Shown piece after piece: positions 20,493 to 22,755 of a stretch of DNA of 64,000 nt. Source of the stretch: Hyphomicrobium sp. Lineage in GTDB: Bacteria; Pseudomonadota; Alphaproteobacteria; Rhizobiales; Hyphomicrobiaceae. Each line of letters opens with the position of its first letter. The first letter of the stretch is position 1. The DNA lies in assembly GCF_019753045.1 (NCBI RefSeq), contig NZ_JAIELN010000010.1, positions 124,001 to 188,000 on the forward strand, read 5' to 3'. The position numbers and the translations under genes are program-made. Below the pieces are notes generated by a model. It saw nothing but the letters and a program-made list of their open reading frames with translations. It made no database searches and had not been told where the DNA came from.

Positions 20493-21146
20493 ATGCAGAA
20501 CGTCGTCATTATCGATTACGGGTCGGGAAATCTCCATTCGGCCGCCAAAGCATTCGAGAGCGCTGCTCGCGATAGCTCCACTCCATCCAAAATCGTCGTC
20601 AGTCCGCGGCCGGAGGACGTGCTCGCAGCCGATCGTATTGTGCTGCCGGGTGTCGGCGCCTATGGCGACTGCAAACACGGTCTCGAGCGCGTTCCGGGGT
20701 TGATCGCGGCGCTCGAGGAAGCCGTTCGGCAGAAGGGCCGGCCGTTTCTCGGCATTTGCGTCGGCATGCAGCTCTTGAGCGAGCGCGGCCTCGAGTTCGT
20801 CGAAACGCCTGGGCTCGGATGGATCAAGGGCGAAGTTCGGGCGATCGAGCCCAAGGATCCGGCGCTCAAAATCCCTCACATGGGCTGGAACACGCTCAAT
20901 GTCGTCAGCCCGCATGCGCTGCTTGACGGCATTCCGACGGGCTCCGATGGCTGGCACGCGTATTTCGTGCACTCATTCGCGATGGTGCCCAAGGAGCGCC
21001 GCGTCGTCGTCGCCGAGACGGACTACGGCGGGCCGATTACGGCGCTCGTTGCGGATGGCAATATCGCGGGCACGCAGTTCCACCCCGAGAAGAGCCAGAA
21101 GCTCGGCCTCAAGCTGATTGCGAACTTTCTCGGCTGGAAGCCGTAA
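20493..21146 (+). CDS. hisH: Imidazole glycerol phosphate synthase, glutaminase subunit
   Basis: A 217-residue class I glutamine amidotransferase that supplies ammonia to HisF. The nucleophile lies in FLGICVGMQLL, and the His/Glu pair lies in GTQFHPEKSQ. The N-terminus VVIIDYGSGNLHS is typical. It starts 14 bases after the DUF2628 gene. Its 3' end overlaps the 3' end of the convergent minus-strand gene by 38 bases. Confidence 0.96.
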   Translation: MQNVVIIDYGSGNLHSAAKAFESAARDSSTPSKIVVSPRPEDVLAADRIVLPGVGAYGDCKHGLERVPGLIAALEEAVRQKGRPFLGICVGMQLLSERGLEFVETPGLGWIKGEVRAIEPKDPALKIPHMGWNTLNVVSPHALLDGIPTGSDGWHAYFVHSFAMVPKERRVVVAETDYGGPITALVADGNIAGTQFHPEKSQKLGLKLIANFLGWKP

Positions 21147-21519
21147 CTGCGTCCTTGGCTGATGCGGCTGCGCCCGTCAGCATTTCGACGGCGGAATTGA
21201 GCGTCGACCAGACGCCGCGGGGCATGTGCCACGATGATCCGTCGGGTTCATCCTCTTCGAGGCGGCCTTGCAGCCAATTCAGCCGTGCCGTCGAAGCCCG
21301 GTCGGCGCGGCCGAGTTCGTGCACGCCGAGTTCGTCCGGGTGATCGAAGAGGATCGCGAGGCGGCGCTTGATCTGATCGGCTCCGAGCCACGTCCGCACG
21401 TACCAGACGCCATTACCGGCGGGGGCGTATTCGGTCGCGATGTAGGGGAGCGAGAACGTCACCGTCCAGGTGTCCTGGTTGGCGGACTTGGGGGTGTGAT
21501 GGAGAAGGAACGTTTTCAT
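21109..21519 (-). CDS. Cas2-like small protein, paralogue B
   Basis: A 136-residue protein starting MKTFLLHHTPKSANQ. The first 75 residues line up with the neighbour at 21788-22156 almost without gaps: M-K/R-T-F/Y-L at the start, a W-Y-V strand at residues 39-41 in both, then a helix with an L-L pattern and a final strand. This is the beta-alpha-beta layout of Cas2/SinR-like ferredoxin folds, but the Tyr-Asp of the first strand is His-Thr here, so nuclease activity is doubtful. The C-terminal 45 residues look disordered. It overlaps the end of hisH. Confidence 0.65.
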   Translation of the reverse strand: MKTFLLHHTPKSANQDTWTVTFSLPYIATEYAPAGNGVWYVRTWLGADQIKRRLAILFDHPDELGVHELGRADRASTARLNWLQGRLEEDEPDGSSWHMPRGVWSTLNSAVEMLTGAAASAKDAVTASSRESSQSA

Positions 21520-21623: not shown

Positions 21624-21676
21624 CTCTGGGGTTATTCAAAAAGGGAGCCCAGGGGGACCAAGCTTCCTTTCCAGTC

Positions 21677-21687
21677 GGGTCTAACAC
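21677..21687. promoter_or_regulatory. GGGTCTAACAC motif, copy 1
   Basis: An 11-base word identical to one 27 bases upstream of the sister gene (22182-22192). Here it lies about 160 bases upstream of the paralogue B start and about 100 bases after the stop of paralogue A. Being shared between paralogous genes suggests either a common regulator or a trace of their duplication. Confidence 0.4.
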
Positions 21688-21787
21688 CGGGGCTTTGGAC
21701 GGGACGGACCCGTTGGGAACGGCGAGGGGGGAGAAAGTCCGCCCCGCCCAAAGACCGGAATTCGTTTGTTCGAGATCAGCCGGCCTT

Positions 21788-22156
21788 TCAACCAGCTCTG
21801 GCGAACGGCAGCTCTGGCTCCATCGGCTCGGCGGCGGCGACTGCCGGCAGCGGGAACGCGATGACGTTGCCATCGGGAGCAAGGTCGAGACCCGGACGGC
21901 GCTGGCGGAACCAGCGGAGCGACGTGTTCGTCATCACCGCCTCGCGCTTCGTCGCCTGGATCACCAGACCGTCCTCTTCGGCGAGAAGTTCTTTGAGCTC
22001 GGTCTCAAGCTCGAACTCTTCGCGGTCCGACGTCACGTACCAGGTGTTGGAGAGCGGCCGTGCCCACTTATCGCCGAGGCCCATGATGACCTGCGCAAGG
22101 ACGTGCTGGTTGCGGTTCGGTTGGGCGAGATCGTACGAGATGAGGTAGGTGCGCAT
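21788..22156 (-). CDS. Cas2-like/SinR-like small protein, paralogue A
   Basis: A 122-residue protein beginning MRTYLISYDLAQPNRNQ, followed by VIMGLGDKWARPLSNTWYV and ELKELLAEEDGLVIQATK. The YDL first strand with conserved Asp9, the LG..W..P..NTWYV middle and the D-L-V-I last strand match the SinR-like/Cas2-like group (stand-alone relatives of the CRISPR integration subunit and VapD-type RNases). No cas1 or CRISPR array is present. AGGAGAG lies seven bases before the ATG. Two LexA-type boxes lie upstream. Residues 85-122 are a Pro/Ala tail. Confidence 0.72.
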   Translation of the reverse strand: MRTYLISYDLAQPNRNQHVLAQVIMGLGDKWARPLSNTWYVTSDREEFELETELKELLAEEDGLVIQATKREAVMTNTSLRWFRQRRPGLDLAPDGNVIAFPLPAVAAAEPMEPELPFARAG

Positions 22157-22233: not shown

Positions 22234-22248
22234 GAACATAGACAGAAC
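22234..22248. promoter_or_regulatory. LexA (SOS) box, GAAC-N7-GAAC
   Basis: GAAC at 22234-22237 and GAAC at 22245-22248 are exactly seven bases apart. On the gene's strand this reads GTTC-N7-GTTC, the alphaproteobacterial LexA operator. It is 78 bases upstream of the paralogue A start. By chance roughly two such words are expected in a 64-kb window, but a second lies only 33 bases away. Confidence 0.6.
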
Positions 22249-22280
22249 ATGCCACGACTCACAGGCTTTGTCCAGCGTTT

Positions 22281-22295
22281 GTTCCAAAAATGTTC
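22281..22295. promoter_or_regulatory. LexA (SOS) box, GTTC-N7-GTTC
   Basis: GTTC at 22281-22284 and GTTC at 22292-22295 are separated by seven A-rich bases (CAAAAAT), as in known alphaproteobacterial boxes. With the box at 22234 it flanks a TGGACA-like -35 hexamer read on the minus strand. The only gene they can serve downstream on that strand is the Cas2-like gene. Confidence 0.6.
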
Positions 22296-22446: not shown

Positions 22447-22755
22447 TTACGGAAAGAGGCTGAGCTGATCGGGATGCGGCGCGAGAGGGATTCGCCGATG
22501 CGGCCCCGGGTCAAAGCGCGGTTCTAGACCCGGGAAGCGGCTCTGAAACTCCTCGAGCGCCCGCTTGCGGCTGCCGGGAAAGCGTGTCTCTTCCCAGATT
22601 TCGTAGAGCCGGCGCGGATCGCAGGCGTAGCGCCGCTGGAGGTCCACGGGGCGGATCTTGAGCCAGCGCGCAATCCAGATATCTACGGCGTCGTCATCGG
22701 TCAGGGGACGGCGTGCGACGCTTGGCGGTGGCTCGTTAAGGAACGCAATGGCCAT
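22447..22755 (-). CDS. Conserved hypothetical protein, possibly HTH-like
   Basis: A 102-residue protein. Residues 18-60 (LTDDDAVDIWIARWLKIRPVDLQRRYACDPRRLYEIWE in part) form three predicted helices with a turn that could be a helix-turn-helix. The tail is Pro/Arg-rich and ends DQLSLFP. No family is named with confidence. ATG 22755 is chosen; the frame is open to 22866. It is divergent from hisA and points towards the Cas2-like pair, 290 bases away. Confidence 0.6.
   Translation of the reverse strand: MAIAFLNEPPPSVARRPLTDDDAVDIWIARWLKIRPVDLQRRYACDPRRLYEIWEETRFPGSRKRALEEFQSRFPGLEPRFDPGPHRRIPLAPHPDQLSLFP

What the first reader, a model, noticed from the sequence alone, without database searches (positions are those of the whole stretch)
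22234..22295. Double LexA (SOS) box upstream of the Cas2-like gene
GAAC-N7-GAAC at 22234 and GTTC-N7-GTTC at 22281 are both exact alphaproteobacterial LexA half-site spacings, 33 bases apart and 78-139 bases upstream of the Cas2-like start. No other gene can use them. It suggests that the Cas2-like pair is induced by DNA damage, which would be an undescribed link.
Basis: partly seen in the sequence, partly recalled or inferred. Interest (0 to 1): 0.75.

Follow-up and report, generated by a model that had tools for sequence, protein, structure and literature searches.

The report
Damage-controlled Cas2-like gene in Hyphomicrobium relatives
A small gene that looks like the CRISPR protein Cas2, but sits outside any CRISPR system, carries a deeply conserved pair of binding sites for the DNA-damage repressor LexA, so it is very probably switched on when the DNA of these bacteria is damaged.

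Summary
Exact GTTC-N7-GTTC matches are common by chance (137 in the genome, 123 for the reversed control), so the motif alone proves little. But all 89 orthologues found in 103 genomes of the bacterial family carry at least one exact box within 250 bp upstream, and 76 of 89 two or more; shuffles give 0.98 and 0.005. In one genome from each of 24 genera, conservation is concentrated in the two boxes, a -35 element, part of the spacer and the -10/box 1 overlap. The same motif lies upstream of lexA in 44 of 44 loci read. I conclude that these are LexA operators of the Cas2-like gene (no experiment). The protein has no Pfam or NCBIfam match; its model is ferredoxin-like and its best solved-structure matches are Cas2, at weak E-values. 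The genome has no Cas1 or PF09827 Cas2. The second gene of the 'pair' is a paralogue without the catalytic Asp, behind two strong hairpins and without an operator; co-induction is unsupported. Leading guess for the product: an SOS-induced, non-CRISPR Cas2-fold nuclease.

The parts
22234..22248 (-). LexA box 1, GTTCTGTCTATGTTC in gene sense; overlaps the putative -10 element
   Evidence: family form close to GTTCYnnnTAYGTTC
22281..22295 (+). LexA box 2 (inverted relative to box 1), GTTCCAAAAATGTTC; 6 bp upstream of the putative -35 element
   Evidence: a start-to-start distance of 47 bp occurs 58 times among the box pairs of the 89 orthologues
22269..22274 (-). putative -35 element TGGACA
   Evidence: at the same place 26-21 bp before box 1, TGGAC in 14 and TAGAC in 4 of 24 genus representatives; the generic sigma-70 scan did not call it
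22246..22251 (-). putative -10 element CATGTT, 17 bp from the -35, overlapping box 1
   Evidence: inferred from spacing and conservation; not called by the consensus scan
21788..22156 (-). Cas2-like gene, 122 aa (MRTYLISYDLAQPNRNQHV...)
   Evidence: orthologue in 89 of 103 family genomes; AF2 ferredoxin-like fold, best PDB matches Cas2
21690..21756 (-). long GC-rich hairpin just downstream of the Cas2-like gene (ends approximate, read by eye from the fold)
21637..21664 (-). terminator-like hairpin with T run between the two genes
   Evidence: scan: 1 found, 2.1 expected in shuffles, so weak by itself
21109..21519 (-). downstream paralogue, 136 aa, Tyr8-Asp9 replaced (MKTFLLHHTPKS...); no LexA box

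Best explanation
The two boxes are a dual LexA operator that controls one gene, the Cas2-like gene at 21788-22156 (-). In undamaged cells LexA sits on box 1, covering the putative -10 element, and on box 2, just upstream of the putative -35, and keeps RNA polymerase off. RecA activated by DNA damage makes LexA cleave itself, and the gene is expressed as part of the SOS response (LexA/RecA mechanism: established knowledge, recalled). The product is a non-CRISPR Cas2-fold protein that keeps the Cas2-type Tyr-Asp, most likely a small nuclease acting on RNA or DNA during SOS (growth arrest, damage processing or defence). Shown by sequence: the sites, their conservation, the promoter footprint, the predicted fold class. 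Inferred: LexA binding, induction, nuclease activity and its purpose. The confidence given is for LexA control of this gene; for nuclease activity I would say about 0.5.
For: Boxes in 89 of 89 orthologues, two or more in 76 of 89, shuffle means 0.98 and 0.005. With one genome per genus, 24 of 24 have one and 19 of 24 two or more, and conservation concentrates in box 2, the -35, part of the spacer and box 1. The motif lies upstream of lexA in 44 of 44 loci read and of nrdJ in 19 of 30, with nrdJ boxes such as GTTCTTTTTATGTTC close to box 1. GTTC-N7-GTTC is the published alphaproteobacterial LexA motif (passages of PMC8565304, and of PMC12700426 for Caulobacter). [quoted passage not shown] of the first 18 Foldseek matches 15 are titled as CRISPR/Cas2 and one is BPSL1038. 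Asp9 is kept in 88 of 89.
Against: No binding or expression data. A spacer matrix from lexA boxes alone ranks box 1 only 47th and box 2 24th against 98 background sites; with nrdJ added they rank 3rd and 21st, with nrdJ and recA 2nd and 14th. 13 of 89 orthologues show only one box within 250 bp. Exact boxes are absent from uvrA in 29 of 30 loci and from recA in 24 of 30, three of which were read at a wrong offset, so the usual SOS genes give a thin reference set. No Foldseek match reaches E 0.001 (best 3.4e-3), and the model is of low confidence from about residue 71 on. Nuclease activity is an inference; some Cas2 proteins have none reported (PMC10491678 passage).
Confidence: 0.88

Rival explanations
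1. The boxes are operators of another regulator (for example a second LexA-like or phage-type repressor) that also reads GTTC direct repeats.
For: The genome holds a second LexA-like gene at C13:56411; the lexA-only spacer matrix does not favour the Cas2-like boxes.
Against: The canonical lexA promoter carries the same motif in 44 of 44 loci read, and 89 of 89 orthologues keep an exact 7-base spacer. The 300 bp before the second LexA-like gene hold no such box even with one mismatch allowed.
Confidence: 0.07
2. The conserved words are only the core promoter and a transcription-start region, and the GTTC repeats are incidental.
For: Box 1 overlaps the putative -10; nearly invariant T9-A10 inside box 1 could be promoter bases.
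Against: Box 2 lies upstream of the -35, is inverted, and two or more boxes are kept in 19 of 24 genera; spacers of 5, 6, 8, 9 or 10 are rare.
Confidence: 0.03
3. The two exact matches are chance, as their number in the genome suggests.
For: 137 sites against 123 control sites in the genome; 2.87 expected in the window.
Against: Conservation in 89 of 89 orthologues and 24 of 24 genera tested.
Confidence: 0.01
4. Operators are real, but the product is not a nuclease: it is a Cas2-fold nucleic-acid-binding or structural protein (or, with the Asp-less paralogue, a regulator pair).
For: Cas2 in CRISPR adaptation has a scaffolding role, as the BPSL1038 paper states (passages); family-specific conserved residues around WARPL and W82 have no assigned role.
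Against: Tyr8-Asp9 retained in 87 of 89 and Asp9 in 88 of 89, as expected of an active site.
Confidence: 0.4

Closest known systems
Alphaproteobacterial LexA/SOS regulon (Caulobacter type, GTTC-N7-GTTC)
   Same: Operator sequence and spacing; box over the putative promoter; same motif upstream of lexA itself
   Different: The target is a Cas2-fold gene, with two inverted boxes mostly 47 bp apart around the -35. Three searches combining LexA or SOS words with Cas2 listed no paper that by title or abstract start describes such a target; open-licence papers only, and of the 99 papers only 12 were listed
CRISPR Cas2 (PF09827)
   Same: Predicted fold and Tyr-Asp at the end of strand 1 (the Cas2 active-site position is recalled and in the passages)
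   Different: No PF09827 match; no Cas1 or PF09827 Cas2 in the genome; the gene sits between hisH and hisA, not in a cas operon
BPSL1038 Cas2/VapD-type nuclease (7vxr; PMC10491678, passages read)
   Same: Stand-alone Cas2 fold in a bacterium without CRISPR; rank 7 of the Foldseek matches
   Different: The D-(X20)-SST motif is absent: in the window protein positions 30-32 are KWA; the paper's main text has the term SOS 0 times
VapD and GhoS RNases of toxin-antitoxin systems
   Same: Cas2-related fold (GhoS 2llz at rank 19); VapD homology to Cas2 per PMC3506569 passages
   Different: No toxin-antitoxin pairing shown; the paralogue lies behind hairpins

Membership tests
LexA-controlled (SOS) gene | Exact GTTC-N7-GTTC over or next to the promoter | tested here: met
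   the promoter itself is inferred (not called)
LexA-controlled (SOS) gene | Operator conserved upstream of orthologues | tested here: met
   89 of 89; 24 of 24 genera
LexA-controlled (SOS) gene | Same motif is used by the organism's own lexA | tested here: met
   own lexA GTTCTTGTCTCGTTC; 44 of 44 loci read
LexA-controlled (SOS) gene | Box scores well against a family-specific LexA matrix | tested here: inconclusive
   lexA-only matrix ranks 47 and 24 against 98 sites; mixed matrices 2-3 for box 1 and 14-21 for box 2
LexA-controlled (SOS) gene | Induction by DNA damage, dependent on LexA and RecA | not testable with these tools
   no expression data
CRISPR Cas2 | Match to PF09827 | tested here: not met
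   0 families for the window protein; PF09827 not among the 10 families matched by any of 42 members; 0 in own genome
CRISPR Cas2 | Accompanied by Cas1 | tested here: not met
   no Cas1 match in own genome; 22 of 102 family genomes have one
Cas2 fold (superfamily) | Ferredoxin-like fold with Asp at the end of strand 1 | tested here: met
   predicted model only, Foldseek E at best 3.4e-3
BPSL1038 subfamily | D-(X20)-SST motif | tested here: not met
   sequences and alignment A1; motif from PMC10491678
VapD/GhoS type toxin-antitoxin | Operonic partner that neutralises or is targeted | tested here: inconclusive
   paralogue found in 23 of 89 loci (tblastn, E up to 1e-3), behind hairpins in the window

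The most novel reading that the evidence does not exclude
A lineage-fixed, non-CRISPR Cas2-fold nuclease serves as an SOS effector in the Hyphomicrobium family: LexA keeps it off through two operators, and DNA damage (or phage attack that triggers SOS) releases it to cleave nucleic acid and arrest or protect the cell. In some genera an Asp-less paralogue, made from a separate promoter, modulates it by heterodimer formation.
Probability: 0.25. Interest if true: 0.8.

Novelty: new variant of a known kind. Interest (0 to 1): 0.62.

Why it matters
What Cas2-fold proteins do outside CRISPR, and why Cas2 proteins show nuclease activity, are open questions (the second is called unresolved in PMC10491678, passage). 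A stand-alone Cas2-fold gene tied by conserved LexA operators to the DNA-damage response in a bacterial family gives a physiological handle: induce with mitomycin C, delete, assay. It also adds a candidate core member to the SOS regulon of this family, in which uvrA lacks an exact box in 29 of 30 loci read.

Tried and rejected
Chance: rejected by conservation. CRISPR membership: rejected. Mobile element: no match in plasmid or phage records, and conserved neighbours hisA (71 of 89 loci), gene X (73 of 89) and hisH (53 of 89) within 1.5 kb, so the gene looks vertically inherited. Co-regulated pair: unsupported in the window. Wider spread of the SOS link: in 397 genomes of the order, 24 outside the family have a remote Cas2-like relative; all 24 were read (plus a second copy in G052, no box) and 3 of 24 have a box (L297, L306, L308), where about 0.2 would be expected at the own-genome density (my arithmetic). 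They are not conserved in near relatives where checked: L294, L298, L301 and L302 beside L297 have none; for L306 only 2 of 28 genomes of its family have a relative, and the other one, G300, has no box. L308 was not followed. Left as a lead. The lexA-only matrix did not support the boxes. In box 2 the pyrimidines of the lexA form are kept less well: both in 27 of 54 distinct boxes (20 of 98 background, 36 of 36 box 1, 25 of 31 lexA). recA was a poor reference: 6 of 30 loci with an exact box, three read at a wrong offset (L092, L100, L107). For lexA locus L087 the gene start was misplaced, so its box position is uncertain; it is counted in the 44. The consensus promoter scan found no promoter. 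The partner's fold search was ambiguous. PHROGs and PADLOC were not searched.

Full report
Observation. The two exact GTTC-N7-GTTC sites exist at the stated places and are the only two in the 64-kb window. They stand upstream of an ORF whose natural start is the ATG at 22156 on the - strand. Box 1 (22234-22248) is at -92 to -78 and box 2 (22281-22295) at -139 to -125. As motif matches they are not unusual: 2.87 expected per window, and the genome holds 137 matches against 123 for the reversed pattern.

Conservation test. The window protein was sought in 103 genomes of its family; 89 have an orthologue, in 24 of 25 genera. I read all 89 upstream regions: 30 came as loci, and 59 were fetched. 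At least one exact box lies within 250 bp upstream in 89 of 89, and two or more in 76 of 89; 13 show only one. Controls: 1 of 88 in the stretch 300-550 bp upstream, 0 of 89 inside the gene, 1 of 89 for the reversed motif; spacers of 5, 6, 8, 9 and 10 give 3, 8, 2, 0 and 1 of 89. In 200 dinucleotide shuffles of the same regions the means are 0.98 and 0.005, with at most 5 of 89 for the first. With one genome per genus, chosen by me, it is 24 of 24 and 19 of 24. Start-to-start distances of the inverted pairs cluster at 47 bp (58 pairs), with 46 (3), 48 (8), 35 (3), 58 (11), 59 (2) and 66 (1). The steps of about 11 suggest helical phasing or a shared extra half-site (inference).

Footprint. Aligned on box 1, the 24 genus representatives keep, above a low background, box 2, a -35-like word at a fixed place (TGGAC in 14 and TAGAC in 4 of 24), part of the spacer (GATTCG-like) and the stretch CATGTTCYnnnTAYGTTC, that is, the -10 and box 1. 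The distance from box 1 to the ATG varies from 47 to 219 bp in these rows, so this is not coding or leader conservation. I place the -35 at 22269-22274 and the -10 at 22246-22251 by inference; the generic scan found no promoter there.

Is the binder LexA? The motif is the published alphaproteobacterial LexA motif (passages of PMC8565304 and PMC12700426). In this family the lexA gene carries it in 30 of 30 loci read and in 14 of 14 further genus loci: 44 loci, out of 95 of 102 genomes with a lexA match; in one, L087, the gene start was misplaced. The class II ribonucleotide reductase gene nrdJ carries it in 19 of 30 loci, with spacers like box 1; the own nrdJ has GTTCACTATATGTTC 44 bp before its start (identified). 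Against this: uvrA has an exact box in 1 of 30 loci, recA in 6 of 30, three of the 30 read at a wrong offset (own recA one mismatch). A matrix from lexA spacers alone ranks box 1 47th and box 2 24th against 98 background sites. With nrdJ they rank 3rd and 21st, with nrdJ and recA 2nd and 14th, with nrdJ alone 2nd and 7th, of 98. Background sites may include real operators, and only 100 of 137 sites were listed.

The protein. No Pfam or NCBIfam family for the window protein; among 42 of the orthologues only weak, unrelated Pfam matches; no PDB sequence match for their profile; no plasmid or phage match. Invariant or nearly so in these 42: Y8, D9, WARPL, W39, Q67, N77, W82. Asp9 is kept in 88 of 89 and Tyr8-Asp9 in 87 of 89. 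[quoted passage not shown] No Foldseek match reaches E 0.001; of the first 18 (prob 0.99-1.00, E 3.4e-3 to 2.2e-2) 15 are titled as CRISPR or Cas2, one is BPSL1038 (rank 7), and two (3exc, 'RNA'se SSO8090'; 1zpw, 'hypothetical protein TT1823') are Cas2 proteins by recall; GhoS is at rank 19. So 'Cas2-like' is right at fold level, but membership in CRISPR Cas2 fails: no PF09827 and no Cas1 in the genome. Of 77 named loci of relatives most bear Hyphomicrobium, Filomicrobium or Hyphomicrobiaceae names; others are labelled Devosia, Bradyrhizobiaceae, Hyphomonadaceae, or only by phylum, class or order, and one weak match is a Moraniibacteriota record.

The partner. The gene at 21109-21519 is a diverged paralogue: its tblastn search also hits Cas2-like genes of other genera, and profile A1 hits it weakly (E 7.1e-5). 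As a separate downstream gene it was found in 23 of 89 loci (E up to 1e-3), including all 19 loci of the genus, and none of the 23 keeps Tyr-Asp. Its model has the same fold order but ambiguous matches, Cas2 among them. In the window 268 bp lie between the genes, with two strong hairpins, the second terminator-like; strong hairpins are also seen in the five other genus loci printed (G041, G044, G045, G047, G052). Exact boxes in the intergenic region: 1 of 23 (G044, inside the hairpin); one-mismatch boxes in its last 150 bp: 1 of 23 (G047). Against my reading: in G085 the gap is only 73 bp with no strong hairpin, so joint transcription is possible there, and read-through in the window is not excluded. 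I do not find co-induction of the pair supported.

Context. The gene lies between hisH and hisA: hisA within 1.5 kb in 71 of 89 loci, gene X in 73, hisH in 53. Outside the family, remote Cas2-like proteins occur in 24 genomes of the 397 searched in the order; 3 of these 24 have a box, and follow-up of one found no conserved case. In what I searched, a conserved SOS link appears only in this family.

Literature. Searches LexA+SOS+Cas2+alphaproteobacteria (2 papers), SOS response+Cas2+LexA+toxin (7 papers), any two of Cas2, mitomycin C, LexA box, SOS-regulated (12 of 99 listed) and LexA+Hyphomicrobium (4 papers) listed, by title and abstract start, no report of a LexA-controlled Cas2-fold gene. 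The library is open-licence papers only, and I read only passages of four papers.

Verdict. The sequence evidence for LexA operators is strong; SOS induction of the first gene is very likely but untested; induction of the second is unsupported; the biochemical role is open, a nuclease being the leading guess. PMC3506569 (passages) predicts CRISPR Cas2 to be an mRNA interferase linked to dormancy or suicide, with genotoxic stress among the triggers; an SOS-driven Cas2-fold gene would be a natural test of a related idea, though this protein is not a CRISPR Cas2.

Noticed in passing
G000 C5:124183- (L318, L363): Class II ribonucleotide reductase gene nrdJ has GTTCACTATATGTTC 44 bp before its start; 19 of 30 family nrdJ loci have a GTTC-N7-GTTC box, a likely further LexA target.
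   Followed up: partly
uvrA loci L332-L361: uvrA lacks an exact LexA box in 29 of 30 loci of this family.
   Followed up: partly
21640-21760: Two strong GC-rich hairpins between the Cas2-like gene and its paralogue; the first (GGTCTTTGGGCGGGGCGG...) recurs in the genus loci printed and may be more than a terminator.
   Followed up: no
22447-22755 (-): Gene X, 102 aa, no Pfam or NCBIfam match, found by tblastn in 73 of 89 loci near the Cas2-like gene.
   Followed up: no
G000 C13:56411-56986 (L194): Second LexA-like gene next to uvrA without a GTTC box; its upstream region has GGAGAAATTTTGGAGAAA-like repeats.
   Followed up: no
L297, L306 and L308: Remote Cas2-like genes in other families of the order with single GTTC-N7-GTTC boxes (3 of 24 read); conservation not shown.
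   Followed up: partly
G000 C5:223722 (L319): GTTCTTTGTTTGTTC, the best background score under the nrdJ-based matrices, lies between two divergent ORFs: candidate SOS target.
   Followed up: no
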